This document shows positions 15,769-30,715 of a stretch of 38,221 nt of DNA, in pieces (position 1 is the stretch's first letter; each line of letters begins with the position of its first letter). The DNA comes from Actinomycetota bacterium. GTDB lineage: Bacteria; Actinomycetota; Thermoleophilia; Solirubrobacterales; Solirubrobacteraceae. The notes below the pieces were generated by a model. That model had not been told where the DNA came from. It did not search any database and was given only the letters and a program-made list of their open reading frames with translations. The position numbers and the translations under genes are program-made. The stretch lies in NCBI GenBank assembly GCA_016781085.1, contig JADDQZ010000059.1, positions 36,026-74,246 on the forward strand, in the 5' to 3' direction.

Positions 15769-18700
15769 CTTCCTTGGCAGCCCCGCGATTGGCATTCACG
15801 GATGAACAACAGGCGGCTATCGACGCGCGCGGCGGCTCCGGGCTGCTGAGCGCCAGCGCCGGCTCGGGCAAGACGGCGGTGATGGTCGAGTCCTTCGTCC
15901 AAGCTGTCTTGGCCGACGGCGTTGCCGTCAGCGAAATTCTGGCGTTGACGTTCACCGAAAAGGCGGCGGGCGAATTGCGCGAACGCCTGCGCAAGCGCTT
16001 CAGCGATCTCGGCGAAGATGATCTCGCCCGCGAGACCGAAAGCGCCTGGGTAGGCACCATCCACGGCTTCTGCGCGCGGGTCCTGCGCGAAGAGCCGCTC
16101 GTGCTTGGCCTTGACCCTCGCTTCACCGTGCTCGACGAGCCCACCGCTGGACGCCTGGCGACTCGCGCCCTAGACCAAGCGCTCGAGCAGTGGATTGCTC
16201 GCCACGGGGAATCTGCACTCGACGTTGCGGCCGCTTACGGGCCGACGCTTTCTCCGCTGTTGATGGAGGTGTTCGCCGAGCTGCGCAGCCGTGGACAGAC
16301 TCGTCCGCGGCTGCCGCTGCCACCGTCCCCGCGAACGCCCAACCCGCAGTCATTGCTCGGCCCCCTGCAGACGGTCACCGAGGCGTTGCCGGTGGCAGCA
16401 GACGGAGCCATGATGCGCAAGGCGAGGGTGGCGCTGACGGCTTGCCGGCGGCGGTTGGAGGCGTGTACTGAGACGAGGTCGGTGCCGCGCCCCGGAGAGC
16501 TGCTCGCGGGCCGCCTGCCGACCGGCGGGGCGGCTCTGGCGACGGCCGATTGCGTCGCCTACCGCGACGCCTGGGCGCAGTACGTGCAGAGTTGCGCGGA
16601 CTTCCACGCCGCAGCGGCGCTGATCCTGCTCGACGACCTTCTGGACTGCTTCGGTCGGGCCTACGCCGAAGCCAAGGCGGCCCGGGCGGGCGTGGATTTC
16701 GCGGACTTGGAGTTGCTCGTGCGCGATCTTTTCGTCGCCGACGAGTCGGCCCGCCAGCGTTGGAGCGAGCGCTTTTCGCGGCTGATGATCGACGAGTTCC
16801 AAGACACAAACCGCGTGCAGCTCGACGTGTTAGAAGCGCTTGAACGCGGCAACTTGTCCGCCGTGGGCGACGAATTCCAGTCGATCTACGGCTTCCGGCA
16901 CGCCGATGTGACGATCTTCCGCGAGCGCCGTGCGGCGCTTGGCGACGGCGCCGTCATGCGGCTGACCGCGAACTTCCGGTCGCGGAAACCGGTGCTCGAT
17001 GTGGTCAACCATGCCTTCACGCCCATCTTCGGCGAGCATTTCGCGCCCCTGCGCCCGGGCGGGCAGGCGTGGAGCGAGTTCGCAGATGAGCCACTGGTCG
17101 AGCTGCTGGTGACTCATTGCCGAGGGTGGGACGAGCTCGCCTCCGGAGTTGGCTTGAGCGCCTTCCCCGACCCAGTGTTCCGCCGAGCGGAAGCGCGTGT
17201 CGTTGCGCGCCGTGTGCGTGCCGAGCTTGATGCTGGGCGACGGCCCGGAGAAGTCGTGCTGCTGCTGCGGTCGACTTCGTCACTGCGCCTGTTCGAGCAG
17301 GCGCTGGAAGAAGAAGGCGTTCCGACTTACGTGCTCGGAGGCCGCGGCTACTGGTCACAGGAACAGGTCCGCGATGCCCTTGCCTATCTCGGCGCCGTCG
17401 CCAATCCGCTCGATGAGCAAGCACTGTTCGGGGCGCTCGCGTCGCCTTTCTGCTCGGCTGGCACCGATGCGCTCGTTCTCCTGGCCGAGGCAGGACGCCA
17501 CAGCGGCAGGGGTGCCTGGGCGGCCCTGAAGCAGCTGGGAGCCGCTCAGGACGGCTTTGACGGGCTTGACCCGGCTGAGCAGGAGCGGCTGCGGCGGTTC
17601 GCCTCGATTCTGAGCGCGCATCGCGAGCTGGCGGAGGGGATTTCGGTGGAGCAGCTGCTCGACGAGGCGGTCACCGAACTCGGATACGACCTCGCTGTGT
17701 TGGCTCGTCAAGACGGTGACCGACGGCTCGCCAACGTACGCAAGTTGATGCGGATGGCCCGCGAATACGAGCGGGCCGAAGGCGCCGATTTGCGTGGCTT
17801 CATCGCTTTTGCCGAGGGCGAAGACCTACGCGAAGCGCGCGAGGGCGAGGCTCCGCTGGAGGCCGAGGACTTAGACGCCGTCCGGTTGATGACGATTCAC
17901 CGGGCCAAGGGGCTCGAGTTTCCTGTCGTCGTCATCGCTGATCTCGGCCGCCAGGGGAGCACCAGCAAGCCGGCCCTACTGGTCGGGCGAGACGGTCGCA
18001 TCGGGTTGAGGCTTGCCACCGTCGGCGCTGGCGACCGAACGGACTCGCTGCACTACCGCACGCTCGCGGACGAGCGCGCCGCGGCCGAAGATGACGAGGA
18101 GCGACGCCTGCTGTACGTCGCTCTGACGCGGGCGGAAGAAAAGCTCATCCTTTCCGGGGCTACCGACCTCGAGCGGCTGCCCACGGCGCGTCCCGGCGGT
18201 GCGCCGCTGGCTTGGTTGCTGCCAGCGTTGCTGCCGGCGCCGGCGGCGGCGGCGCTGGCTGACGCACAAGGACGGGCTGCCAACTGCACTGTGGTCGATT
18301 GCGGCGGGGCGCCTCTCAAAGTTGCGGTGACCACGCCTGATTCCTTCGCCACCGGGGTCGCCGTAAGTGCAGGAGCGCAGGCAGGTTCCAGTCACCCGAT
18401 GGCGAGTTCTTACGACGGCCGGTTGGCCGGGCGAACTCTTCGAGGAGTCGCCGGAAGTGGCGGGCATGGAGTCGAACGCCACAACTGCAACGGCAACGGC
18501 GACGGCGACGGCGACGGCGACGGCCACGGCAAGGCAGGCCGCGAGCCCGCGGGAACCTCGGTGTCACATGCGGGGCGTGCGGCCCGCGTGTCTTATTCCT
18601 CACTCAGCGCGTACGCGCGCTGCTCATATCGGTTCTACCTACAGCGCGTTCTAGGGCTGCCCGACGCACCGGTGCCAGTGATCAGTCCGGCGGGCACGCA

Positions 18701-19403
18701 GCTCGTCTTGTCGATGGATCCAGCTGTGTCGCCGCGGGTCCGCGGGCGCGTGGTTCACGCGCTGCTCGAGGGGATCGACTTCGCGCGGCCCAAGGTCCCG
18801 TCGCCTGAACAAGTGGCGGGGCTGCTCGCCGGCGAGGGCGTATCGCAGCCGTCGGCGGCCGACCTGCAAGACATCCGGGGTCTTGTGTCAGCCTTCGCGC
18901 GCTCGCCGCTGTGTTCGCGGCTTGCCCAAGCGCGGCGAGTGCGCCGTGAGGCGCCGTTCGCTTGCACGCCGTTTGAGGGCGGCGAGCCGCTCCTGACCGG
19001 ATTTCTCGACGTCTGGGCGCAAGAAGAAGACGCAGGCGTGCTGATCGTCGATTACAAGACCGATCGACTTGGCGATACCGGTCCGCGCGAAGCCGTCGAT
19101 CTCCACTACGGGTTGCAGCAGGCGGTTTACGCCCTTGCCGCGCTCAACGACGGCGCTCGCGAGGTTCGAGTCGCGTATTGCTTCTTGGAGCGATCCGAAC
19201 ACCCGGTTCTCACACGATTCCGGGCGTCGGACGTGCCCGCGCTCGCGCGACAGGTCACCGCGCGTGCGCAAGGCATCCTCAATCAACAGTGGCCCGTCGC
19301 ACAACAGCCGCACCGCGACCTCTGTGGCGACTGTCCCGGTCGCGTGAGCCTCTGCTCACATCCGGAGGCACTCACGCTGCGCGACCCGTCGATCCGCCGC
19401 TGA
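15765..19403 (+). CDS. AddA-like UvrD/REP helicase with C-terminal nuclease
   Basis: A 1212-residue ATP-driven DNA helicase/exonuclease of the RecBCD/AddAB/AdnAB type, for end resection in recombination repair. Walker A is ASAGSGKT (Lys36), TFTEKAAGELRERL is motif Ia, and DEFQD (Asp343-Glu344) is Walker B. VRLMTIHRAKGLEFPVVV and LLYVALTRAEEKL are motifs V and VI. The C-terminal PD-(D/E)XK nuclease has Asp1082 (GFLDVW) and Asp1096/Lys1098 (VDYKTDR). Cys953 with Cys1187, Cys1190 and Cys1197 could hold an iron-sulfur cluster, which classical AddA lacks. A low-complexity Asn/Asp-Gly linker (residues 909-922) separates helicase and nuclease. It starts at a GTG overlapping the AddB-like stop, so the two are translationally coupled. 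Confidence 0.9.
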   Translation: MTSLAAPRLAFTDEQQAAIDARGGSGLLSASAGSGKTAVMVESFVQAVLADGVAVSEILALTFTEKAAGELRERLRKRFSDLGEDDLARETESAWVGTIHGFCARVLREEPLVLGLDPRFTVLDEPTAGRLATRALDQALEQWIARHGESALDVAAAYGPTLSPLLMEVFAELRSRGQTRPRLPLPPSPRTPNPQSLLGPLQTVTEALPVAADGAMMRKARVALTACRRRLEACTETRSVPRPGELLAGRLPTGGAALATADCVAYRDAWAQYVQSCADFHAAAALILLDDLLDCFGRAYAEAKAARAGVDFADLELLVRDLFVADESARQRWSERFSRLMIDEFQDTNRVQLDVLEALERGNLSAVGDEFQSIYGFRHADVTIFRERRAALGDGAVMRLTANFRSRKPVLDVVNHAFTPIFGEHFAPLRPGGQAWSEFADEPLVELLVTHCRGWDELASGVGLSAFPDPVFRRAEARVVARRVRAELDAGRRPGEVVLLLRSTSSLRLFEQALEEEGVPTYVLGGRGYWSQEQVRDALAYLGAVANPLDEQALFGALASPFCSAGTDALVLLAEAGRHSGRGAWAALKQLGAAQDGFDGLDPAEQERLRRFASILSAHRELAEGISVEQLLDEAVTELGYDLAVLARQDGDRRLANVRKLMRMAREYERAEGADLRGFIAFAEGEDLREAREGEAPLEAEDLDAVRLMTIHRAKGLEFPVVVIADLGRQGSTSKPALLVGRDGRIGLRLATVGAGDRTDSLHYRTLADERAAAEDDEERRLLYVALTRAEEKLILSGATDLERLPTARPGGAPLAWLLPALLPAPAAAALADAQGRAANCTVVDCGGAPLKVAVTTPDSFATGVAVSAGAQAGSSHPMASSYDGRLAGRTLRGVAGSGGHGVERHNCNGNGDGDGDGDGHGKAGREPAGTSVSHAGRAARVSYSSLSAYARCSYRFYLQRVLGLPDAPVPVISPAGTQLVLSMDPAVSPRVRGRVVHALLEGIDFARPKVPSPEQVAGLLAGEGVSQPSAADLQDIRGLVSAFARSPLCSRLAQARRVRREAPFACTPFEGGEPLLTGFLDVWAQEEDAGVLIVDYKTDRLGDTGPREAVDLHYGLQQAVYALAALNDGAREVRVAYCFLERSEHPVLTRFRASDVPALARQVTARAQGILNQQWPVAQQPHRDLCGDCPGRVSLCSHPEALTLRDPSIRR
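18489..18530 (+). repeat. In-frame hexanucleotide repeat, seven (RAC/CAC GGC) units
   Basis: Two AACGGC units, four perfect GACGGC units and one CACGGC unit are arranged head to tail. They encode NG-NG-DG-DG-DG-DG-HG in the linker between helicase and nuclease of the AddA-like protein. Because the unit is six bases, gain or loss of copies keeps the reading frame and would only change linker length. Confidence 0.9.
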
Positions 19404-20591: not shown

Positions 20592-21479
20592 TTGACTGAC
20601 GATCGCTACGAGCAGGGCGCCAAGGTGCCGACCGACTCCGAACCGGAGTTGTCGACGGCGTTGCCCTACGCTGCGCGCGAACCTAAGACCACTCGTCAGC
20701 GCAAGTCCACGCCGGACCCGGCCGCTCGTGCCGCTCGTGCCGACGAGGACCGCCGGCTGCTGATCCGCTACCACCGCGACGGTGATCCGGCAGCTCGCGA
20801 AGCGCTGGTCTCGCGCTTCCTTCCGCTCGCTCGCCAGCTAGCCCGCCGCTATCAACACGGCGGCGAGCCGCTCGACGACCTTGTTCAAGTCGCGTCGCTT
20901 GGCTTGCTCAAGGCAATCGATCGCTTCGAGCCAAGTCGTGAAACCGCGTTCTCTTCTTTCGCCGTTCCAACCATCCTCGGCGAGCTCAAGCGCCATTTCC
21001 GCGACCGTGGCTGGTCCGTGCGAGTTCCCCGCGACCTTCAGGAGCTGGCGGTCAAAGTGGATCGAGTGGGGGACGAGGTTGGCCGTGAGCTCGGCCGCGC
21101 GCCCACGGTCGACGAGCTGGCACAGCGGCTAGGAGTGACGGCCGAGCAGGTGCTGGAGGCTCGTGAGGCCGCCGGCGCCTACCGCGCGGTTTCCCTTGAC
21201 CGCCCGCGCGGCGACGACGAAGACGACGAGTCGGTCGCGCAGACTTTCGGCGCCGATGACCCCGGCTTCAACCTGGCAGAAGACGCGGCGACGGTCGAGA
21301 GGCTGATGACCGTGCTGAACGAGCGCGAGCGCCAGGTGCTCCAGTTGCGCTTCGCCGAGGACCTGACGCAATCGGAGATCGGCGCGCGCGTCGGTGTCTC
21401 GCAAATGCACGTCTCGCGGATCATTCGCCAAGCCGTGGCACGCCTGCGCGACGCGGCCGAGCAGGGGCCTCAGGTTTAG
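20592..21479 (+). CDS. SigB/SigF-family RNA polymerase sigma factor (copy 1)
   Basis: A 295-residue group 3 sigma-70 factor of the general-stress type. About 50 charged N-terminal residues precede region 2 (RRLLIRYHRDGDPAAREALVSRF; EPLDDLVQVASLGLLKAIDRFEP; FSSFAVPTILGELKRHFRDRGW). Region 3 includes VRVPRDLQELAVKVDRV and the PTVDELAQRLGV helix-turn-helix. Region 4 ends in LRFAEDLTQSEIGARVGVSQMHVSRIIRQAVARL, which reads the -35 element. Such factors are normally held by an RsbW-like anti-sigma and released by a STAS antagonist; both types lie at 22628-23414. A TTG is the first available start, with GGGA five bases upstream; GTG 20625 is an alternative. A close paralogue is at 26332. Confidence 0.92.
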   Translation: MTDDRYEQGAKVPTDSEPELSTALPYAAREPKTTRQRKSTPDPAARAARADEDRRLLIRYHRDGDPAAREALVSRFLPLARQLARRYQHGGEPLDDLVQVASLGLLKAIDRFEPSRETAFSSFAVPTILGELKRHFRDRGWSVRVPRDLQELAVKVDRVGDEVGRELGRAPTVDELAQRLGVTAEQVLEAREAAGAYRAVSLDRPRGDDEDDESVAQTFGADDPGFNLAEDAATVERLMTVLNERERQVLQLRFAEDLTQSEIGARVGVSQMHVSRIIRQAVARLRDAAEQGPQV

Positions 21480-21496
21480 AGCGTTCCCCCACGGGG

Positions 21497-21841
21497 ATGC
21501 CTAGGGCCATGCAGCACTGGGATCTACGAACGCTCGAAGTACAGCCACATCAGCCGCAGATTCTCCAATCTGACCGCGGCGATTCCCGATCGATCCTGAT
21601 CAACTTGCCGTCAGGCGAGGCGCTTCAGGAGCATCAGGTCCACGAACGGGCACACCTTGTCGTCATCGACGGGGAGGTAGAAGTCGACCGGTCCGGGGAA
21701 GTCATCTCCGCGAGTGCCGGCACGTTCGCGGTCTTCGACCCGCATGAGCCCCACGAGGTGCGCGCCAAAAGTGACGCGCGCCTCCTGCTCGTCCTTGCGC
21801 CGTGGCCCGGAAGTGGCCACCCAGGCGCGCGCGACGAGTGA
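21497..21841 (+). CDS. Cupin domain protein
   Basis: A 114-residue single-domain beta-barrel. SGEALQEHQVHERAHLVVIDGEVEV corresponds to cupin motif 1, with histidines and glutamate at metal-ligand-like positions. GTFAVFDPHEPHEVRAKSDARLLLVLAP corresponds to motif 2, again with histidines. Substrate and metal cannot be assigned; small cupins of this kind may be dioxygenases, sensors or sugar-binding proteins. It begins 17 bases after the sigma factor stop on the same strand, so it is probably co-transcribed. An ATG at 21509 is an alternative start; neither start has a clear ribosome-binding site. Confidence 0.82.
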   Translation: MPRAMQHWDLRTLEVQPHQPQILQSDRGDSRSILINLPSGEALQEHQVHERAHLVVIDGEVEVDRSGEVISASAGTFAVFDPHEPHEVRAKSDARLLLVLAPWPGSGHPGARDE

Positions 21842-21888
21842 TAGACACTGGCGCTTAGCGCTCACCACCGATACGGAAAGAGAGATTC

Positions 21889-22563
21889 ATGCCCTGGGAC
21901 GAACTGGTTCCGCGGAAGTTCGCTGCCTTCGAGACCGAGTTGGACGGCATCTCGAAGAAGACGATGGACGATCACTACAAGCTCTACGAGGGCTACGCGA
22001 AGAAGGCGAACGAATGCCGCAAGATCCTCGACGAGTTCGATTACGCGGAGATCGAGGGCAACGCGACGTACTCGCCGCTGAGGACGGTTTCGATCGAGTA
22101 CACGTTCGCGCTGCTCGGTTACAAGAACCACGATCTCTACTTCGGTCACCTCGGCGGAGACGGCGGCGAACCCAACGGCCGCTTTGCGGAACTGCTCGAA
22201 GATGAGTTCAAGCCCGGTGGCGTCGAGGGCTGGAAACACGCCGTCCGTAAGGGCGCGATGTCGGCCCGCGGTTGGGTCATGGTCGGATACGACCTCAACG
22301 ACGGCTCGCTGTTCAACTACGTCATGGACACCCAGAACCTGTGGGCCGTCTACAACATGGTGCCCGTCCTCGGCATCGACGTCTACGAGCACGCCTACGC
22401 CGTCGATTTCGGCGCCACGCCGGCGGGACGCAAGGACTACGTCGAGGCCTTCTTCCGCAACATCAACTGGGATCACGTCAACCGTCAGCTCGCACAGGCC
22501 GAGGGGGCGCGCAACGGTGCATCCCAGGTCGGCGCCCAAGAGCCGCCCGTCGCCGGCAGCTAG
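21889..22563 (+). CDS. Fe/Mn superoxide dismutase family protein
   Basis: A 224-residue protein of the iron/manganese superoxide dismutase family, which converts superoxide to hydrogen peroxide and oxygen. All four metal ligands can be placed: His29 (DDHYKLYEGY), His81 (YKNHDLYFGHL), and Asp164 and His168 in the C-terminal signature DVYEHAYAVDF. GGEPNGRFAELLEDEF and VEAFFRNINWDHVNRQL also match the family. The KHHxxY gateway segment is altered to KLYEGY and the usual QVWNH is replaced by LLGYKNH, so activity or substrate may differ. A purine-rich AAAGAGAG precedes the ATG. It lies 47 bases after the cupin, suggesting a sigma factor-cupin-dismutase transcript aimed at oxidative stress. Confidence 0.83.
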   Translation: MPWDELVPRKFAAFETELDGISKKTMDDHYKLYEGYAKKANECRKILDEFDYAEIEGNATYSPLRTVSIEYTFALLGYKNHDLYFGHLGGDGGEPNGRFAELLEDEFKPGGVEGWKHAVRKGAMSARGWVMVGYDLNDGSLFNYVMDTQNLWAVYNMVPVLGIDVYEHAYAVDFGATPAGRKDYVEAFFRNINWDHVNRQLAQAEGARNGASQVGAQEPPVAGS

Positions 22564-22589
22564 TCACGACCGCGTAGAGAGAGGCGAGT

Positions 22590-22615
22590 CCCGGGTGGCA
22601 CTCCTGCCGCCCGGG
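22590..22615. terminator. 11-bp stem hairpin between convergent dismutase and STAS genes
   Basis: CCCGGGTGGCA, loop CTCC, and TGCCGCCCGGG pair over eleven positions with a single G-T wobble. The hairpin begins 27 bases after the dismutase stop and ends 12 bases before the STAS stop. No T-run follows, so it is a U-less, probably bidirectional terminator. Confidence 0.7.
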
Positions 22616-22627
22616 CGGCCTTCCCAA

Positions 22628-22981
22628 TCAGGCGCTACGGAGCATGAGCGCATCCTCGACGGATGCGACGATGCGAAACACGCCGTCCAGGCCAGTTATG
22701 CGCAGGACCTTGAGAATCCGTTCCTGGTCGCAAGCGATGATCAACGAACCGCCCCGTCGGGTCTGTTTGCGGTGAGCGCCGATAAGGACCCCGAGACTCG
22801 ACGAGTCCAGGAAATTAGCCTCGCTGAAGTCGATCACCAGCGTGTCGTAACCGCTCCTGACCGCTTCGGCCACGTGCGCCTTGAACTCCGGGGCGGTGAA
22901 GAGATCGACTTCGCCGTGGACCGCTACGACGACCGTAGTCGCGTCCATACGCTCAAGCTCGATCGCGAAGGTGGTTGTCAT
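22628..22981 (-). CDS. STAS-domain anti-anti-sigma factor
   Basis: A 118-residue single STAS domain, the RsbV/SpoIIAA fold. VVAVHGEVDLFTAPEFKAHV is the opening strand-helix unit and TLVIDFSEANFLDSSSLGVLIGAH the core. In this family the serine following the conserved aspartate (here within Ser60-62) is phosphorylated by the anti-sigma kinase, and the unphosphorylated form frees the sigma factor. The ATG at 22981 gives a normal domain edge; an in-frame TTG at 23017 adds twelve residues and has no ribosome-binding site. The gene follows the ATPase-fold gene by 49 bases on the same strand, and the two should form a partner-switching pair for one or both nearby sigma factors. Confidence 0.88.
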   Translation of the reverse strand: MTTTFAIELERMDATTVVVAVHGEVDLFTAPEFKAHVAEAVRSGYDTLVIDFSEANFLDSSSLGVLIGAHRKQTRRGGSLIIACDQERILKVLRITGLDGVFRIVASVEDALMLRSA

Positions 22982-23030
22982 TGATGCCTGGTGGTTCCCG
23001 GACTGTCGCCGAAACAATCGGCACGTGACG

Positions 23031-23414
23031 TCACTGCGAGTACGTAAGCCGCAGGACGAGGTATTCCGAGCCGTCTTGCGGCACGATGGTGAGCTCGTCC
23101 GCGAGCTGCTCGATCACGTTGCCGACTCCGGGCACGGCAGCGCTGGCCACCAGGGCTTTGCAGCCACCGGGATCGAAGGGGCCGACGCGCAACGACAGCG
23201 ACCGGTCCCCCGGTTCCAGCACTACTACTACCGCTGAATCGCGCACGTGCCTCGGAGCCCGCTCGGAGATGACGTCGCTGACCAGGATGGCGTCATCCAG
23301 GCGATCGAGCGGGAGGTCGGCACGGGCCGCCATCATCCCTACAACGCGGCGCAGCACAGGGCCCACGAGGGGTCCAGCGACGATCGACACGGTGGTCGCC
23401 GAGGGATGCGTCAC
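23031..23414 (-). CDS. RsbW-like anti-sigma protein with degenerate GHKL ATPase fold
   Basis: A 127-residue protein whose position before the STAS gene, size and strand pattern fit the histidine-kinase-like ATPase fold of anti-sigma factors. LPLDRLDDAILVSDVISERA takes the place of the N-box helix, but the conserved asparagine that binds magnesium is not present. RVGPFDPGGCKAL stands where the DxGxG ATP-lid motif is expected. LADELTIVPQDGSEYLVLRLTY ends the protein like the last strands of RsbW. It may bind sigma factor without efficient kinase activity. It starts at GTG with GGAGG four bases upstream. The family assignment depends partly on context. Confidence 0.7.
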   Translation of the reverse strand: MTHPSATTVSIVAGPLVGPVLRRVVGMMAARADLPLDRLDDAILVSDVISERAPRHVRDSAVVVVLEPGDRSLSLRVGPFDPGGCKALVASAAVPGVGNVIEQLADELTIVPQDGSEYLVLRLTYSQ

Positions 23415-23418
23415 GCAG

Positions 23419-23423
23419 CCTCC
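23419..23423 (-). promoter_or_regulatory. Ribosome-binding site of the anti-sigma-like gene
   Basis: GGAGG on the minus strand lies only four bases before the GTG at 23414, a tight spacing. It fixes the start of the gene. It also lies inside a 24-codon upstream frame (23485-23411) that ends over the GTG as GTGA, so a passing ribosome could affect initiation. Confidence 0.55.
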
Positions 23424-23709
23424 AAGTTCGCAGTCGAGCGGATATACGGCCCAAAGGGCTCGGTCGGCATCTTCATGGTTTGCATCCCGTCATGAACACC
23501 TCGGAACCTTGGTCGACCCTGCCGGTCGCGCGTCGTGCCGGAAGTTGGAGCTTACCTGCCGGGAGACTCAAACGAATGAGTTGTCCTGCCCGCGCCGGTA
23601 CCCACTGGCTGCGGTGATGTAACCGCAGCAATCGCTCTGTGGCGCGGATGCCGGAACCACACTTGCCCGCGCAGATTGCCTCGTCAGTGGTACGGGCAGT
23701 AAAAGTCCA

Positions 23710-24144
23710 ATGGCTCGCACACAGATGCAATTCGACACGACGCCGGAGCGAATCTTCGAAGTGCTTTCCGATCCCCGCAGCTACGGCGACTGGGTGGTCG
23801 GATCGAAGGAGATCCGCTTCTGGGACCCGGACTTCCCTGCGCAGGGTTCGGCGTTTCATCACACGTTTCTCATCGGGCTGGTGCCGGTCAAGGACCACAC
23901 GACCGTGGTGGAAGTCGACGCGCCGCGGTATTTGCTTCTGCGCGCCAGAGCGCGGCCGACCGGTATCGCTCACGTCGCCTTGCGCCTTGAGCCGCGTAAC
24001 GGCAAGACGCAGGTGACGATCGAGGAATGGCCGGTCGACGGTGTCGCCGCCAAATTGCACAACCGGATTCAAGACAAGCTCATCGCGTTGCGCAACGTCG
24101 AATCCCTGCGGCGCCTCAAGCGACTTGCTGAGCAGCCGACATGA
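23710..24144 (+). CDS. SRPBCC family protein
   Basis: A 144-residue helix-grip protein. MQFDTTPERIFEVLSDPRSYGDWVVGSKEI is the family opening, with the typical aromatic/tryptophan position. It is followed by antiparallel strands (HTFLIGLVPVKDHTTVVEVDAPRYLLLRARARP) and a C-terminal helix (HNRIQDKLIALRNVESLRRLKRLAEQ). It probably binds a hydrophobic ligand; neither ligand nor activity is known. It is divergent from the anti-sigma-like gene, and its last 29 bases overlap the end of the convergent DUF1360 gene. The 295 bases upstream hold no recognised gene apart from the 24-codon frame on the other strand. Confidence 0.82.
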   Translation: MARTQMQFDTTPERIFEVLSDPRSYGDWVVGSKEIRFWDPDFPAQGSAFHHTFLIGLVPVKDHTTVVEVDAPRYLLLRARARPTGIAHVALRLEPRNGKTQVTIEEWPVDGVAAKLHNRIQDKLIALRNVESLRRLKRLAEQPT

Positions 24145-24658
24145 CGACCGCGGCGTCGGCGCCGGGCTCCTGGAGCACGTCGGCGCGAGTCCGGGCGATC
24201 TCGGCGGTCGCTTCGGTTTCGTTGGACTGTGAGCGCAGCCACGAAAAGGTGGTGTGCAGGAGGTCGTTGCAAGCCGAAACCGCCAGCACGCTCGTGACTG
24301 TGTTGGCTGCGGTCGGGGCGTACACCCGCAATGAGACAACCGCCAGCGCGCTCCAGCCGCCGGCGCAGCGCGTGCACGTCAACAGCTCGCCCACCGCGTA
24401 ACGCAAGCGTTTGCCTTTCGGGCGCTTACCGTCGGACGTCTCCTCGACGAATGGTTGCCTGACCCAGGTCTCGACTTTCTCTTGCACCAAGAGCTTCGAT
24501 AGCGCAAAAGTTGCGACGCCGAGAGGAATCAGCTCTGCTCGCTCGATCGGAGCCCGGCTACGTCCGCCAATGGCCGACAGGGCCAGGAGCGACGAATACG
24601 TGCCGGACAACAGGGCATAGTCGAGGGGCTTGGTCGGGGTCTCGGAGACAGGTTTCAT
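24116..24658 (-). CDS. DUF1360 membrane protein
   Basis: A 180-residue protein with hydrophobic segments near residues 13-27 (DYALLSGTYSSLLALSAIGG), 45-60 (LIPLGVATFALSKLLV) and 94-125. It carries the DUF1360 hallmark: KVETWVRQPFVEE, then a CTRCAGGW motif at the start of a helix (LLTCTRCAGGWSALAVVSL). The two cysteines are conserved in the family and may bind metal or form a redox pair, but the function is unknown. The ATG at 24658 has GAAGG eight bases upstream. The 3' end overlaps the convergent SRPBCC gene by 29 bases. Confidence 0.85.
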   Translation of the reverse strand: MKPVSETPTKPLDYALLSGTYSSLLALSAIGGRSRAPIERAELIPLGVATFALSKLLVQEKVETWVRQPFVEETSDGKRPKGKRLRYAVGELLTCTRCAGGWSALAVVSLRVYAPTAANTVTSVLAVSACNDLLHTTFSWLRSQSNETEATAEIARTRADVLQEPGADAAVVMSAAQQVA

Positions 24659-24669
24659 GACGAAGGCCT

Positions 24670-24846
24670 TCAGATCGGGCGAGGGTTGGGATCCGGGGGA
24701 AACGGCGCTGGCGCAGGCGTGGGCGCCGGAGGCACGGGGTCGGGTCCCGCTGGAAAGGGGTCAGGCGTCGGACCGGGGGAGGGTGGCGCAGGATCCGGTC
24801 CGGGCCCGGGCGCCGGGAAGGATGGTGAGTGGTCCGTCGTGATCAC
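24670..24846 (-). CDS. Short proline-rich hypothetical ORF
   Basis: A 58-codon frame from a GTG, ending 11 bases before the DUF1360 start. After VITTDHSPSF it becomes almost half proline in PxPxP runs (GPDPAPPSPGPTPDP, APTPAPAPFPPDPNP), like a flexible extracellular or wall-spanning stretch. An in-frame stop directly upstream excludes fusion with the membrane protein ahead of it. No ribosome-binding site is seen, and proline/glycine-rich frames arise easily in GC-rich DNA, so this is tentative. The opposite strand reads glycine-rich here and is judged less likely. Confidence 0.35.
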   Translation of the reverse strand: MITTDHSPSFPAPGPGPDPAPPSPGPTPDPFPAGPDPVPPAPTPAPAPFPPDPNPRPI

Positions 24847-24937
24847 AGCGCGGGGCTACCCATCGCTGTCGGCGGTCAACCGCGTCAAGCGCTACACCAG
24901 ACACGCCGGTGGCTGGCAAGCCCCGTTCGTATCGGAG

Positions 24938-25375
24938 TCAGACCGGGCGGTCGGCGAGGCGCTCGGATTCAGGCGGCCGGCGATCCGTGGGCATTGCGTC
25001 TTCGCTGTTGGGCACCAGGTCGGCGTTCGCAGGGGCCGGCGCGGACGTCTCGTGCGGCTGGGAGGGGTCCACGCCAGCGTCTCGCTCGGGCGGGACCGTA
25101 GCGCCGTAATGGGTGACCGGGTGTCCCGTGCCCCCGTGCACGGCCGCGTCCTGTTCGCCGATCGTCTCGCCGGAGTCGGTCTGCTGTCCGGCATGCTCGG
25201 CGGTGTCGCCCAGTGGGGTCGGGTCAGCGCCGATACCGGGGCCTCCGCCATGCGACTCGTCGGCGGCCACCGCGTCGTGGTGAGCGCGCGTCCTGCTCCT
25301 GGAGTTCAGGACGAATGCGGTCGCCAGGACCACGACGATCAGCAGTACGAGGAAAATCGGCACGGCGTATTCCAT
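24938..25375 (-). CDS. Single-pass membrane-anchored hypothetical protein
   Basis: A 145-residue protein with an N-terminal membrane helix (YAVPIFLVLLIVVVLATAFVL), a short basic stop-transfer (NSRSRTRAHH), and a long hydrophilic tail. The tail is rich in Gly, Pro, Asp, Glu and Thr and has no recognised domain (DESHGGGPGIGADP, ETIGEQDAAVHGGTG). The tail is probably disordered and, by the positive-inside rule, cytoplasmic. Function is unknown. The gene is read toward the proline-rich frame and DUF1360, and is divergent from the HAD phosphatase. The overlapping plus-strand frame has no sensible pattern. Confidence 0.6.
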   Translation of the reverse strand: MEYAVPIFLVLLIVVVLATAFVLNSRSRTRAHHDAVAADESHGGGPGIGADPTPLGDTAEHAGQQTDSGETIGEQDAAVHGGTGHPVTHYGATVPPERDAGVDPSQPHETSAPAPANADLVPNSEDAMPTDRRPPESERLADRPV

Positions 25376-25552
25376 GCGACTCGGCTACCCCCGGCCTTTT
25401 CGGCGCAAACGGCTAACACGCCGGCGGTTTGGCTTGCGCCTGCCTAGCGGTAGAGCGGAACAAACCGATGAAGGGAAATCACTGATGCAAGAACTCGTGC
25501 CGATGACGGCGCGGTACCGCACACCCACGGCTTGCGCCAGGCCTGGGACAAG

Positions 25553-26221
25553 ATGAGCGGATCGCAATCACCTCCTGTTGCCCTGCTGGACATCGACGGC
25601 ACGCTTGTCGACACCAACTATCAACATGCCTTGGCTTGGTACCGCGCGTTTCGCCGTCAGGACCTGACGATCCCGCTGTGGATCATCCACCGCCACATCG
25701 GCATGGGCGGGGACCAGCTGGTGCCGACTCTTGGCGGGGAGAAGTTCGCCGCCGAGAGGGGAGAAGCGGCGCGCGCAGCCGAGAAAGAGGAGTACGGGGC
25801 TTTGATCGAGCAAGTTCAGCCCTTGCCCGGCGCTCGGCGCCTCATCGAGCAGCTGAAGGAACGCGGTCACACCGTCATGCTGGCCTCCTCGGCCAAGGAA
25901 GAGGAAACCGAGCACTACGTCGACTTGCTCGGCGTGCGCGAGATCGTCGACGGCTGGACGATGTCGGCCGACGTTGAAGCCACCAAGCCGGAGCCCGACA
26001 TCATCGAAACGGCAATGGGCAAGGCCGGCGGAGGTCCTGCCGTGATGCTCGGCGACTCCACCTGGGACTTCATCGCCGCCGGGCGCGCAGGGGTGCCGGG
26101 CGTCGGCTTGTTGACCGGCGGATTCAGCCGCGAGGAACTGCTCGGAGCCGGGGCTGAAGTGGTGTTCGAGTCGCTCGAGGAGCTGTCTGAGTCCCTGCCC
26201 CAGACGCCGTTTTCGAAATAG
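25553..26221 (+). CDS. HAD-superfamily phosphatase (phosphoglycolate phosphatase-like)
   Basis: A 222-residue haloacid dehalogenase-like hydrolase. Motif I DIDGTLVDT carries the nucleophile Asp13 and acid/base Asp15. Motif II is VMLASSAKEEE, the motif III lysine is in ATKPEPDI, and motif IV is GDSTWDF. The alpha-helical cap between motifs I and II (YQHALAWYRAF through RRLIEQLKERG) is the C1 type seen in phosphoglycolate phosphatase and beta-phosphoglucomutase. The exact substrate cannot be inferred. The ATG at 25553 leaves the usual short lead before motif I; TTG 25532 is possible. The second sigma factor follows by 110 bases on the same strand. Confidence 0.87.
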   Translation: MSGSQSPPVALLDIDGTLVDTNYQHALAWYRAFRRQDLTIPLWIIHRHIGMGGDQLVPTLGGEKFAAERGEAARAAEKEEYGALIEQVQPLPGARRLIEQLKERGHTVMLASSAKEEETEHYVDLLGVREIVDGWTMSADVEATKPEPDIIETAMGKAGGGPAVMLGDSTWDFIAAGRAGVPGVGLLTGGFSREELLGAGAEVVFESLEELSESLPQTPFSK

Positions 26222-26331
26222 TCACGCGCGCGTCCGCGTAGCCATTAGTGTTGCGCGCAAATGTCCTTCCGACCCGGGCGCTAGACGTTCGGGTCGGGGG
26301 CCGCAACCCCGGCGCAAGTCGAAAGGCAACC

Positions 26332-27237
26332 GTGGAACTGGCGCAGGATCCGCTGCCTCCCACCCAGGGTGACGCCGATGCGGGACAGTCCACGCGCCGG
26401 TTCGCGCGCCGCGACGGGTCCGGGCACGCTCCTGCGGCGGCAGCAGCGGGGGTTTCACGACGGTTCGACGGTGGCTCCTACAGCGCTATTCCGGGCCGTG
26501 CGGATGAGGAGCGGCGACTACTGCTGCGCTACCACCGCCAGCATGACGAGGCGGCGCGCGACGAGCTCGTTCGGCGCATGATGCCTCTGGCTCGGCGCCT
26601 GGCGCGACGCTACCGGCGCGCCGAGGAACCGCTCGACGACCTCGTGCAAGTAGCCACGCTGGGGCTGCTCAAAGCGATCGACCGCTTCGATCCGGAGCGT
26701 CACACGGCGTTCTCCTCGTATGCCGTGCCAACCATGCTCGGGGAGCTCAAGCGCTACTTCCGCGACAGCGGCTGGGCGGTGCACGTTCCCCGGGGGATGC
26801 AGGAACGCGTGATGGCGGTCGACAACACCGTCAAAGACCTTTCGCGCAATCTAGGCCGTTCTCCTACGGTCTACGAGATCGCAGCCGCGTTGAACCTGCA
26901 ACCCGAGCAGGTGCTCGAAGCGATGCAAGCGGCTGGTGCCTATGACGCCGTGTCGCTGGAAGCGCATCGCTTCGGGGACGAAAACGACGGCGAAACGTAC
27001 GCCGACTTCATTGGCGTCGAAGACGAGCGCTTCGAGCTCGTCGAGTACGAGGCGACGATCGCGGCCGCGCTCGCAGCCCTGCCCAACCGTGATCGCGTGG
27101 TCTTGCGCCTGCGCTTTGCCGAAGACCTGACTCAGGCGGAGATTGCCGAGCGCGTCGGGGTGTCGCAGATGCACGTGTCGCGGCTGATCCGCCGCGCCCT
27201 CGAGCGGCTCCGCACGGTCGCCGAATACTCGGCCTGA
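26332..27237 (+). CDS. SigB/SigF-family RNA polymerase sigma factor (copy 2)
   Basis: A 301-residue group 3 sigma factor, clearly paralogous to the one at 20592. The shared region 2 core is EPLDDLVQVATLGLLKAIDRFDPE with FSSYAVPTMLGELKRYFRDSGW. Region 3 contains VHVPRGMQERVMAVDNTV and PTVYEIAAALNLQPEQVLEAM. Region 4 ends RLRFAEDLTQAEIAERVGVSQMHVSRLIRRAL, almost the same recognition helix as copy 1, so the -35 targets probably overlap. Divergence is greatest in the N-terminal 80 residues and in the linker before region 4. The GTG at 26332 is chosen because GAAAGG lies five bases upstream; the frame opens at 26248. The anti-sigma and STAS genes lie between the two copies. Confidence 0.91.
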   Translation: MELAQDPLPPTQGDADAGQSTRRFARRDGSGHAPAAAAAGVSRRFDGGSYSAIPGRADEERRLLLRYHRQHDEAARDELVRRMMPLARRLARRYRRAEEPLDDLVQVATLGLLKAIDRFDPERHTAFSSYAVPTMLGELKRYFRDSGWAVHVPRGMQERVMAVDNTVKDLSRNLGRSPTVYEIAAALNLQPEQVLEAMQAAGAYDAVSLEAHRFGDENDGETYADFIGVEDERFELVEYEATIAAALAALPNRDRVVLRLRFAEDLTQAEIAERVGVSQMHVSRLIRRALERLRTVAEYSA

Positions 27238-27434: not shown

Positions 27435-29105
27435 GTGAAGGTCCTCGGGATAAACGCCGTCTTCCATGATCCGGCTGCCGCTTTGGTCGTCGATGGGCGC
27501 ACGGTCGCGGCTGCCGAAGAAGAGCGCTTCTCCCGGCGAAAGCACGGCAAGACGCCGGTTCCCTTCTCCACTTGGGAGCTGCCCGAGCAGGCGATCCAAT
27601 GGTGCCTGAGCGAGGCCGGAATCGGTCCCGAGGAACTCGACGCGGTCGCGTACTCCTACGACCCCTCGCTGGCGGTCCAGCCCGGAACGGACCTGACTTC
27701 CGACGAGTGGGAGGGCTTGAGGACGTTGTACGCACAGCGCGCTCCGCTGTTCCTGCGCACGCTGCTGCCGCAAGTCGATCCCGTCAAGTTCCGCTGGGTA
27801 CCGCACCACGTCGCTCACGCCGCCTCGGCGTACCTGGCTTCAGGGCATGACCCTTGCAGCGTGCTGGTCCTCGACGGGCGCGGCGAGCGTGCATCGCATC
27901 TGGCCGGCCGCGCCGTTGGCGGCCAACTGGAAGTGCTGGCCTCGCAGCAGCTGCCGCACTCGCTTGGCTTGCTTTACGAGGAACTGACCGCCCATCTCGG
28001 CTTTCGCCGCTCGTCAGACGAGTACAAGGTGATGGCGATGGCTTCCTACGGGCAGCCACGGTTTCTCGAAGCTTTCCGTACGCTGGTGCGCGCGGATGAC
28101 GACGGCGGCTTCTTCGTAGGAGACATCGACTTCAGCTCCTTTGCGCCCCCGCTGATGCCCGGTGGCGACTTCACGCCAGATCACGCCGACCTCGCGTCGA
28201 CAGTGCAGCGGCGCTTGGAAGAAGTGCTGCTCGACCTGCTCCGTTGGCTGCACGCGCGCACGGGTGACTCGCATCTGGTGATGGCGGGCGGCGTGGCTTT
28301 GAACTGTGTGGCCAATACCCGGTTGTGGGAAGAAGGCCCGTTCGACTCCATCTGGATCCAGCCGGCGGCCGGTGACTCGGGAACGGCGTACGGAGCGGCT
28401 CTGGCCGTTGCTCGTCAACTGGGGGACGAGGTCAAGCCGATGCCTACGGCCGCGCTCGGCCGCGGCTGGTCCGACGACGAGCTCGAGAAGTGGTTGCGAA
28501 CAGCGGCCGTCGCCTATGAGCACACCGATGATGTCGCCAGAGAAGTCGCGCAGACCCTGGCGGACAATGGTGTGGTGGCGTGGTTTCAGGGGCGCTCTGA
28601 ATTCGGTCCCCGCGCGCTCGGTCACCGCTCGCTGCTGGCTGATCCTCGGCATCCGCGGAACCTGGAGAAGCTCAACGACATCAAGGGCCGCGAGCAGTTC
28701 CGGCCGGTGGCGCCGATGGTCCGGGCGCAGCGCGCGGCGGACATCTTCTCCGGTCCGCTTCCGAGCCCGTACATGTTGTTCACTCATCGCGTACACGAAG
28801 ACTGGATCGATCGCATCCCCACGGTCGTGCACGTCGACAAGACGGCGCGGGTGCAGACAGTCGACGAACGCGACGAGCCGCTGGTCGCCGCCATGCTCGA
28901 GCACTTCGAAATGCTCACCGGTGTCCCGGTAGTCGTCAACACCAGCTTGAATACGGCTGGACGTCCGATGGTCGACGACCCGCGCGACGCACTGGAGTGC
29001 TTCGGGTCGGCGCCCGTGGATTTGCTGGCCATCGGTCCGTTCCTCGTGCGGCGCCCCAGCGCGCCTGAGCTTGCGGCGCTAGCCGGCACTGAGGCCCAGG
29101 CGTGA
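27435..29105 (+). CDS. NodU/CmcH-family carbamoyltransferase
   Basis: A 556-residue enzyme expected to transfer a carbamoyl group from carbamoyl phosphate, via carbamoyl-adenylate, to a sugar hydroxyl. The Kae1-like N-terminal domain opens MKVLGINAVFHDPAAALVVDG and contains HHVAHAASAYLASG and VLVLDGRGERAS. The family signatures MAGGVALNCVANTRLWEEG and EFGPRALGHRSLLADPRHP, with FRPVAPMV, follow in the C-terminal domain. The GTG at 27435 gives the classical family N-terminus; a TTG at 27429 adds two residues, and neither has a clear ribosome-binding site. It is the first of nine overlapping genes and its stop overlaps the next start (GTGA). Context suggests it carbamoylates the glycan built by the operon. 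Confidence 0.92.
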   Translation: MKVLGINAVFHDPAAALVVDGRTVAAAEEERFSRRKHGKTPVPFSTWELPEQAIQWCLSEAGIGPEELDAVAYSYDPSLAVQPGTDLTSDEWEGLRTLYAQRAPLFLRTLLPQVDPVKFRWVPHHVAHAASAYLASGHDPCSVLVLDGRGERASHLAGRAVGGQLEVLASQQLPHSLGLLYEELTAHLGFRRSSDEYKVMAMASYGQPRFLEAFRTLVRADDDGGFFVGDIDFSSFAPPLMPGGDFTPDHADLASTVQRRLEEVLLDLLRWLHARTGDSHLVMAGGVALNCVANTRLWEEGPFDSIWIQPAAGDSGTAYGAALAVARQLGDEVKPMPTAALGRGWSDDELEKWLRTAAVAYEHTDDVAREVAQTLADNGVVAWFQGRSEFGPRALGHRSLLADPRHPRNLEKLNDIKGREQFRPVAPMVRAQRAADIFSGPLPSPYMLFTHRVHEDWIDRIPTVVHVDKTARVQTVDERDEPLVAAMLEHFEMLTGVPVVVNTSLNTAGRPMVDDPRDALECFGSAPVDLLAIGPFLVRRPSAPELAALAGTEAQA

Positions 29106-30715
29106 CAACGGGAGCCGGCGCGTCGGCAGCGCGTTACGACGTCGTCATTCCCACCTCCGGCCGCTCGTCGTTGCGCGCATTGCTGGAAGCGCTCGAGGCG
29201 GGCAGCGGTCCGCGGCCCGGACGCGTGATCGTGGTCGACGATCGGCGCCGGCGCGACGACGAGCTTGCGCTCGGTCAGCCCGGAAGCTGGCTGGCCGATC
29301 GGCTCTCCGTATTGGCCGGGCCGGGCCGCGGACCGGCCGCCGCGCGCAACGCCGGCTGGCAGGCGGCGAGCGGCGACTGGGTCGCCTTCCTCGACGACGA
29401 CGTCGTCCCGGAGGCCCGCTGGGCGCTCAAGCTCGCGGAGGATCTCGCGGTCGACTCCTCCGTGGCAGCGAGCCAGGGTGAAGTCATCGTGCCGCTGCCC
29501 CCGGGGCGTCGCCCGACCGATTGGGAGCGCAACGTCGCCGGCCTCCAAACCGCTGTTTGGGCTACCGCCGACATGGCGTACCGACGCAGCGTGTTGTCTG
29601 CCGTCGGCGGCTTCGACGAGCGTTTCCCGCGGGCCTATCGGGAAGACGCCGACCTCGGTCTGCGCGTGGTTGCTGGAGGTTGGTCGATCGTCAAGGGCAC
29701 GCGCCGGGTCTCACATCCGGTTCGTCCTGCGCCCGTTCGCGTCTCGTTGTCCAAGCAAGCCGGCAACGCGGACGACGTCTTGATGAGTGCTCTGCATGGT
29801 CGCGACTGGAGGATGCGGGCGGGCGCTCCTCCCGGCCGGCGCGTCCGGCACCTTGCCGCCACGGCGGCGGCCGTCGGGGCTGTGGGCTTCAATGCCGCGC
29901 GGCGGCCGCGCTCGGCCGCTGTCGCCGGGCTCCTCTGGGGCGCGGCTACGGCTGAGTTGGCCTGGGCGCGGATCGCTCCAGGTCCGCGCGACCGCACCGA
30001 GATCGCAACCATGGCCTGGACCTCCGCCGCCATGCCGTTTGCGGCCACGGGTTGGTGGCTCGTAGGGTGGGCGCGCTTGCGAAGGAACCTGGCCGACACG
30101 GCGCGCGCTCCGCACGGTGAATTGCGCGCGGACTTAACGCCCGCGGCGCGTCGCGGGCCGGACGAGTGTCCGGCTGCCGGCAGGAACCTTCTCGATCCGC
30201 CTGAAGCGGTCTTCTTCGACCGCGACGGGACGCTTGTGGTCGACGTCCCGTACAACGGCGATCCCGACCAAGTCCAGCTTGTGCCCGGGGCCCGCGCCGC
30301 GCTGTTGAAGCTGCGCAACGCCGGCATCGCTACCGCGGTGGTCTCGAACCAAAGCGGGGTAGCGCGCGGCTTGATCAGCTCCGAGCAGGTTGATGCGGTC
30401 AACGCGCGTATAGAGGAGCTGCTCGGGCCGCTGGGACCATGGGCGTGGTGTCCGCACGGTCCCGAAGACGGCTGCGATTGCCGCAAGCCCCGCCCCGGAC
30501 TGGTCCTGCGCGCCGCGCACGAGCTCGGTGTGGATCCGCGCCGCGTCGCGGTAGTCGGCGACATCGGCGCCGACATGGAGGCCGCACGGGCAGCCGGCGC
30601 TCGCTCCGTACTGGTACCGACGCCGACCACGCGGGCCGAAGAAGTGCAAGCGGCGCCCGTCGTCGCCGCTGACCTCGAAGCAGCCGTTGATCTCTTGCTG
30701 GCGGGCCGGGCATGA
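29102..30715 (+). CDS. Fusion of family 2 glycosyltransferase and GmhB heptose bisphosphate phosphatase
   Basis: A 537-residue two-part protein. Residues 10-230 form a GT2 (GT-A) domain: YDVVIPTSGR, VIVVDDRR, GPAAARNAGWQAASGDWVAFLDDDVVPEAR with the metal-binding acidic cluster, and FPRAYREDADLGLRV. Residues 245-330 are hydrophobic, probably two or three membrane helices. Residues 365-537 match GmhB, the HAD phosphatase that removes the 7-phosphate of D-glycero-D-manno-heptose 1,7-bisphosphate. It has Asp373/Asp375 in FFDRDGT, SNQSGVARG, and the zinc site Cys450, His452, Cys458 and Cys460. GmhB is normally a separate protein; fusion to a transferase ties precursor synthesis to the membrane. 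Both junctions are 4-base overlaps. Confidence 0.9.
   Translation: MTTGAGASAARYDVVIPTSGRSSLRALLEALEAGSGPRPGRVIVVDDRRRRDDELALGQPGSWLADRLSVLAGPGRGPAAARNAGWQAASGDWVAFLDDDVVPEARWALKLAEDLAVDSSVAASQGEVIVPLPPGRRPTDWERNVAGLQTAVWATADMAYRRSVLSAVGGFDERFPRAYREDADLGLRVVAGGWSIVKGTRRVSHPVRPAPVRVSLSKQAGNADDVLMSALHGRDWRMRAGAPPGRRVRHLAATAAAVGAVGFNAARRPRSAAVAGLLWGAATAELAWARIAPGPRDRTEIATMAWTSAAMPFAATGWWLVGWARLRRNLADTARAPHGELRADLTPAARRGPDECPAAGRNLLDPPEAVFFDRDGTLVVDVPYNGDPDQVQLVPGARAALLKLRNAGIATAVVSNQSGVARGLISSEQVDAVNARIEELLGPLGPWAWCPHGPEDGCDCRKPRPGLVLRAAHELGVDPRRVAVVGDIGADMEAARAAGARSVLVPTPTTRAEEVQAAPVVAADLEAAVDLLLAGRA

What the first reader, a model, noticed from the sequence alone, without database searches (positions are those of the whole stretch)
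20592..27237. Two paralogous stress sigma factors bracket a partner-switching pair and oxidative-stress genes
Within 6.7 kb there are two SigB/SigF-family factors with nearly the same DNA-recognition helix, one STAS antagonist, one ATPase-fold anti-sigma-like protein, a cupin and an Fe/Mn superoxide dismutase homologue. One anti-sigma pair may serve both factors, or one factor may be free of control. A duplicated factor around its own regulators could create layered stress control.
Basis: partly seen in the sequence, partly recalled or inferred. Interest (0 to 1): 0.52.

Follow-up and report, generated by a model that had tools for sequence, protein, structure and literature searches.

The report
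Stress-sigma switch missing its kinase
A soil actinobacterium keeps two old stress sigma factors around a switch made of a sigma-blocking protein that has lost its ATP site and the small protein that should release the block, while the kinase gene that relatives keep beside them is missing here.

Summary
The ATPase-fold protein ("P5", 23031-23414, minus strand) matches no Pfam or NCBIfam family, but its predicted fold is that of RsbW/SpoIIAB/UsfX. Its N-box Glu and Asn and its G1 DxGxG are absent in all 46 homologues aligned. By profile and tree it groups with UsfX-like anti-SigF proteins, the kind reported as kinase-negative in mycobacteria. In relatives, a kinase-competent RsbW gene sits directly 5' of P5, often fused to it: 109 of 114 P5 places. 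The window is the one place with sequence on both sides and no such gene. The matching SigF-type promoter box and the stop/start junction remain. I read the locus as an autoregulated partner switch with a dedicated anti-sigma and antagonist whose in-cis kinase was lost; a kinase acting in trans, or control by protein levels, must replace it. The sigma pair is old: it is shared with Solirubrobacter and is not a recent local duplication. Which sigma P5 binds is untested. New variant of a known kind.

The parts
20592..21479 (+). sig1, SigB/SigF-type sigma factor (longest ORF; true start may lie downstream)
   Evidence: TIGR02980 274 bits; clade with Solirubrobacter sig1 99/98
21497..21841 (+). 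small cupin, 17 bases after sig1; also next to sig1 in L026, L028, L029, L062
   Evidence: PF07883
21889..22563 (+). Fe/Mn superoxide dismutase homologue; not conserved at this place in relatives
   Evidence: PF02777; no match
22628..23017 (-). STAS anti-anti-sigma with DS phospho-acceptor motif (DSSSL from residue 71 of the longest ORF)
   Evidence: TIGR00377 over cut-off
23031..23414 (-). P5: UsfX-like anti-sigma factor of RsbW fold without ATP-site motifs
23411..23476 (-). 21-codon leader ORF whose stop overlaps the P5 start codon; its last codons resemble the end of the missing kinase gene (inferred relic)
   Evidence: GAGGCTGCGTGACG here, GACGCTGCGTGACG in L029, L030 and L032
23599..23624 (-). 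SigB/SigF-type promoter box GGTT-N17-GGGTA, 185 nt 5' of P5
23710..24144 (+). SRPBCC protein, divergent; in L027 the kinase gene lies between it and P5
   Evidence: PF10604
24116..24658 (-). DUF1360 protein; SigF-like box at 24857-24881(-)
   Evidence: PF07098
24938..25375 (-). small uncharacterised protein with a SigF-like box (GTTT-N16-GGGTA, 25386-25410) right before its start, also in L030 and L062
25532..26221 (+). HAD-type hydrolase, next to a sigma gene in many relatives
   Evidence: PF00702
26248..27237 (+). sig2, SigB/SigF-type sigma factor
   Evidence: TIGR02980 271 bits; clade with Solirubrobacter sig2 100/98

Best explanation
The locus is a SigB/SigF-type partner switch in which anti-sigma binding and kinase work are split between proteins. 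P5 is a dedicated, kinase-dead anti-sigma factor of the UsfX/RsbW1 type. The STAS protein is its antagonist: unphosphorylated, it binds P5 and frees the sigma factor. In relatives a third protein, a kinase-competent RsbW encoded directly before P5 or fused to it, would phosphorylate STAS and close the switch. This lineage has lost that gene but kept its promoter and the P5 start junction, so P5-STAS is still transcribed from a SigF-type promoter (feedback). The STAS must now be phosphorylated in trans, for example by the RsbW at C82:79273-79758, or the switch works by P5/STAS ratio alone. Shown by computation: genes, fold, loss of ATP motifs, kinase neighbour in relatives and its absence here, conserved promoter box, age of the sigma pair. 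Inferred: binding partners, phosphorylation, feedback, trans kinase.
For: Fold: AF2 model of P5, pLDDT 87; Foldseek's 19 best PDB matches are all UsfX, RsbW or SpoIIAB chains, best 8ih8 UsfX-RsfB at 1.7e-7; VIA Z 14.9 to RsbW 6m36, rmsd 2.0 over 103. Kin: P5 profile against four UsfX-like proteins, E 3.4e-11, against canonical kinases 7e-4; joint clade 99/97; one of those four, L167, matches M. tuberculosis RsbW at 5e-10, and L163, L165, L167, L170 are each followed by a SigF-type sigma frame. Motifs: E and N invariant in 22 of 22 canonical proteins, absent in 46 of 46 P5 at the aligned positions 48 and 52; DxGxG 0 of 46. R23 and D41, matching RsbW Arg23 and Asp42 that contact RsbV (PMC7340262, passages), kept in 43 and 45 of 46. 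Kinase neighbour: 107 of 114 places, 109 after re-checking; none in the window. Promoter box before the kinase gene in 7 of 7 distinct Solirubrobacter-group loci and at the matching place here. Precedent: M. smegmatis RsbW1 anti-SigF, RsbW2 kinase (PMC7693655: abstract, outline, passages, Discussion). P5 is still constrained: codon-position differences 0.23/0.16/0.51 against L062.
Against: No binding data. The P5 profile finds no UsfX chain in the PDB by sequence. Four of five AF2 models were poor (pLDDT 71 to 51). The tree tool warned that long branches meet, and the four UsfX-like rows were found with the P5 profile itself, so they are not an independent sample. Profile similarity to canonical kinases is weak (probability 26%). 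The leader shows no DNA similarity to the missing kinase gene beyond the junction. GGTT-N15-18-GGGTA occurs twice in the window against 1.0 in shuffles, so the box counts only by its conserved place; outside the Solirubrobacter group only 4 of 28 loci have such a box before the kinase gene. The genome is a draft, 89% complete, and no reads were seen.
Confidence: 0.66

Rival explanations
1. P5 is an RsbW3-like decoy: it does not bind sigma but forms heterodimers with another RsbW and weakens it, so its SigF-type promoter gives positive feedback.
For: M. smegmatis RsbW3 binds RsbW1 and not SigF, raises SigF activity and has a SigF promoter (PMC7693655). P5 is encoded beside, or fused to, an RsbW-like kinase in relatives and has a SigF-type box upstream.
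Against: In M. smegmatis the anti-sigma itself (RsbW1) is also kinase-negative. The distant P5 homologues L163, L165, L167, L170 are followed by a SigF-type sigma frame, as expected of anti-sigma factors. In this window the adjacent RsbW partner is gone, yet P5 is still constrained.
Confidence: 0.17
2. One reading: one ordinary kinase/anti-sigma RsbW with its STAS antagonist controls both sigma factors.
For: Gene content and fold; no other RsbW-type gene in the window; sigma genes of both types lie near P5 loci elsewhere.
Against: P5 lacks every ATP-site motif tested and matches no HATPase family. Relatives keep a separate kinase.
Confidence: 0.07
3. The kinase gene is present in the organism but missing from this draft through misassembly.
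For: Draft genome, 82 contigs, 89% complete; single genome of its genus among the 146 searched.
Against: The place is inside a 96-kb contig. SRPBCC, promoter box and P5 are in the same order as in L027, and the leader between box and P5 resembles no known neighbour gene.
Confidence: 0.08

Closest known systems
Mycobacterial SigF partner switch: RsbW1/UsfX, RsbW2, RsfB (PMC7693655)
   Same: Anti-sigma of RsbW fold without kinase activity, separate RsbW-type kinase, STAS antagonist with a phospho-acceptor Ser, SigF-type sigma, GTTT-N17-GGGTAA-like promoter.
   Different: In Solirubrobacteraceae kinase, anti-sigma and STAS genes are mostly adjacent, and kinase and anti-sigma share one open frame in 49 of 114 places. 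P5 has also lost the N-box Glu that UsfX-like proteins keep. In the window the kinase is gone.
Bacillus RsbW/RsbV/SigB and SpoIIAB/SpoIIAA/SigF
   Same: Fold of P5, STAS antagonist with the DS motif, sigma family TIGR02980.
   Different: There one protein is both anti-sigma and kinase; P5 lacks the kinase motifs.
M. tuberculosis Rv1364c (RsbU-RsbW domains, 3ke6)
   Same: A natural fusion of switch components; the RsbW domain is a structural match to P5 (Z 13.3).
   Different: Fuses phosphatase and RsbW domains; relatives of P5 fuse kinase-type and UsfX-like domains.

Membership tests
SigB/SigF/SigG sigma subfamily (TIGR02980) | score over the curated cut-off | tested here: met
   sig1 274, sig2 271 bits, cut-off 234.35; neither passes the SigB or sporulation SigF/SigG equivalog cut-offs
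Anti-sigma factor antagonist (TIGR00377) | score over the curated cut-off | tested here: met
   75.7 bits, cut-off 53.45
Anti-sigma factor antagonist (TIGR00377) | phospho-acceptor Ser after Asp | tested here: met
   DSSSL from residue 71 of the longest ORF; FxDS[STA] in 56 of 60 extracted STAS rows, the four others include truncated extractions
RsbW/SpoIIAB kinase anti-sigma | GHKL fold of the RsbW type | tested here: met
RsbW/SpoIIAB kinase anti-sigma | N-box Glu and Asn | tested here: not met
   0 of 46 P5 rows at aligned positions 48 and 52; 22 of 22 canonical rows
RsbW/SpoIIAB kinase anti-sigma | G1 box DxGxG | tested here: not met
   0 of 46
RsbW/SpoIIAB kinase anti-sigma | Pfam HATPase_c_2 match | tested here: not met
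   no match for P5 nor for seven further P5 family members scanned
UsfX/RsbW1-like kinase-negative anti-SigF | profile and tree kinship | tested here: met
   hhalign 3.4e-11; clade 99/97 with long-branch warning
UsfX/RsbW1-like kinase-negative anti-SigF | gene directly before its sigma gene | tested here: not met
   in the window the nearest sigma genes are about 1.6 and 2.8 kb away and on the other strand
UsfX/RsbW1-like kinase-negative anti-SigF | binds and inhibits SigF-type sigma | not testable with these tools
   needs a binding or reporter assay

The most novel reading that the evidence does not exclude
In Solirubrobacterales the stress-sigma brake is a built-in asymmetric pair, one live kinase domain and one dead anti-sigma domain, made as neighbouring or fused domains in place of the symmetric RsbW homodimer. 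The window lineage then discarded the live half, leaving a kinase-free switch for two sigma factors that is set by the P5/STAS ratio.
Probability: 0.22. Interest if true: 0.6.

Novelty: new variant of a known kind. Interest (0 to 1): 0.42.

Why it matters
It names a widespread anti-sigma family that Pfam does not recognise: P5-type proteins occur in 94 of 146 genomes of the family and 145 of 232 of the order. It shows the split of kinase and anti-sigma roles, known from M. smegmatis, in genes that are adjacent or fused. A natural loss of the kinase half makes it possible to test what the kinase adds to partner switching, and whether one dedicated anti-sigma can hold two sigma factors.

Tried and rejected
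Recent local duplication of sigma: rejected by the tree. A relocated copy of the missing kinase in the same genome: the best match, C82:79273-79758, is only 41-45% identical, whereas it is 72-75% identical to Solirubrobacter-genus proteins at another place, so it is a different gene. HATPase remnant in the P5 leader: no DNA similarity above shuffles. Sequence search of P5 or its profile against the PDB: nothing useful. P5 in plasmids: no match. SigF-like box before sig1 or sig2: none with the pattern used, so autoregulation of the sigma genes themselves is not supported. Relaxed evolution of P5 after kinase loss: not seen by codon position, though P5, STAS and sig2 are about 10 points more diverged from L062 in the window than in L027 while HAD and the carbamoyltransferase are not. 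Papers: searches listed nothing on fused kinase/UsfX-like anti-sigma proteins or on Solirubrobacterales switches. Only listings were seen, except PMC7693655 (abstract, outline, passages, Discussion) and PMC7340262 (passages). In PMC7693655 the kinase-negative finding rests on partly purified RsbW1.

Full report
What is there. The window is G000:C82:36026-74246 of a draft genome of 2.29 Mb, 89% complete. Named relatives are Solirubrobacter. The genome holds a third SigB-type factor (C25:59186-59965, 53%); the other sigma matches are 38% identical or less.

The sigma pair. sig1 and sig2 are 62% identical over 244 aa. In a tree of 33 sigma rows, sig1 groups with Solirubrobacter sig1 (99/98), sig2 with Solirubrobacter sig2 (100/98), and the sig2 group joins sigma rows of other genera that lie near kinase-P5 fusions (99/93). 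The pair therefore predates the split from Solirubrobacter. The bracket sig1-cupin ... STAS-P5 ... HAD-sig2 is found in L028, L029 and L062, and in L026 without a HAD match. Other genera mostly show one sigma near addA/yihY and HAD, several kb from STAS-P5. The SOD has no match in the loci examined.

The ATPase-fold protein. P5 has no Pfam or NCBIfam match, and seven further family members scanned have no Pfam match either. Its AF2 model (pLDDT 87 for the best of five; the others 71 to 51) matches UsfX, RsbW and SpoIIAB. Forty-six homologues were aligned. In 22 kinase-type relatives (21 beside P5, one the separate L083 RsbW) the N-box E and N and the DxGxG are invariant; in P5 the aligned positions 48 and 52 hold no E and no N in 46 of 46, and DxGxG is absent in 46 of 46 (the alignment of these positions follows the ungapped stretch; the gapped alignment would instead set the invariant D47 against the Glu). 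R23 (43 of 46) and D41 (45 of 46) match RsbW Arg23 and Asp42, which contact RsbV (PMC7340262 passages; counts). So the antagonist-facing surface looks kept and the ATP site lost.

Kin. With the P5 profile, distant matches outside the class include proteins followed by a SigF-type sigma frame (L163, L165, L167, L170); L167 matches M. tuberculosis RsbW at 5e-10. Profile against profile: 3.4e-11 for these four, 7e-4 for the canonical kinases. A tree puts P5 with them at 99/97, with a long-branch warning. These rows were found with the P5 profile, so this shows kinship, not an unbiased count. In M. smegmatis, RsbW1 is the anti-sigma without kinase activity and RsbW2 the kinase (PMC7693655).

The missing kinase. 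P5 is found in 94 of 146 genomes of the family and its profile in 145 of 232 of the order. Of 114 P5 places, 107 have a canonical RsbW-type match directly 5' on the same strand; 49 share one open frame with it. Of the seven others, two have the kinase on closer look, two were not confirmed as P5, one has a kinase gene convergent on the other strand, one begins at a contig edge (no DNA upstream), and one is the window. In Solirubrobacter the kinase stop codon overlaps the P5 start codon. The window has no RsbW match anywhere. A search for a relocated copy found only a different, separately conserved RsbW at C82:79273-79758, about 16 kb beyond sig2, beside its own STAS and an RpoD-like sigma.

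Promoter and scar. A box GGTT-N17-GGGTA lies 26-71 nt before the kinase gene in the seven distinct Solirubrobacter-group loci (L026, L027, L028, L029, L030, L032, L062), and at 23599-23624 in the window, 185 nt before P5 and 86 bases from the SRPBCC start. Over all 37 other loci scanned (L063 and L064 repeat L026 and L028), 13 have a box before the kinase gene. The relaxed pattern occurs 57 times in 682,731 bases, about 0.004 per 100 bases and strand. In the window itself GGTT-N15-18-GGGTA is not enriched (2 against 1.0). The junction GACGCTGCGTGACG of L029, L030 and L032 is GAGGCTGCGTGACG here, ending a 21-codon ORF that overlaps the P5 start; I infer a scar of the deletion, but the rest of the leader shows no similarity. 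Similar boxes stand before the small protein (25386-25410, also in L030 and L062) and DUF1360.

How it would work. P5 holds a sigma factor; STAS frees it. With the neighbouring kinase gone, the STAS (DS motif kept) is either phosphorylated in trans (the genome has 12 HATPase_c_2 matches, 8 over the cut-off, 9 STAS and 14 SpoIIE matches) or works by amount. Which sigma is held is unknown.

Limits. No binding or kinase data, one draft genome of its genus, no reads.

Noticed in passing
L083:8010-10204 (G000:C82:78010-80204): An RpoD-like sigma gene (regions 1.1 to 4) faces a STAS-RsbW pair with intact kinase motifs, about 16 kb from sig2; the RsbW is 72-75% identical to proteins in seven genomes of the Solirubrobacter genus group.
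   Followed up: partly
25386-25410 (-): GTTT-N16-GGGTA box ends 11 nt before the annotated start of the small protein 24938-25375, and 12 nt before it in L030 and L062; the mRNA may be nearly leaderless or the start codon lies further in.
   Followed up: no
L171 (G008:C1:3642001-3649000): A second P5-type gene convergent with a canonical HATPase gene, unlike the usual tandem order.
   Followed up: no
L091, L092, L093, L095, L096, L098, L099, L101: Two-domain proteins of about 272-298 aa with an N-terminal kinase-type HATPase and a P5-like C-terminal half; in the four scanned whole (L091, L093, L095, L098) Pfam sees only the first half.
   Followed up: partly
12814-19403: AddB-like nuclease/helicase followed by an AddA-like gene; the AddA-like gene and a YihY/BrkB-type gene recur near the sigma gene in many relatives.
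   Followed up: partly
29102-30715: A glycosyltransferase family 2 domain and a HAD phosphatase domain in one open frame, within a row of glycosyltransferase genes.
   Followed up: no
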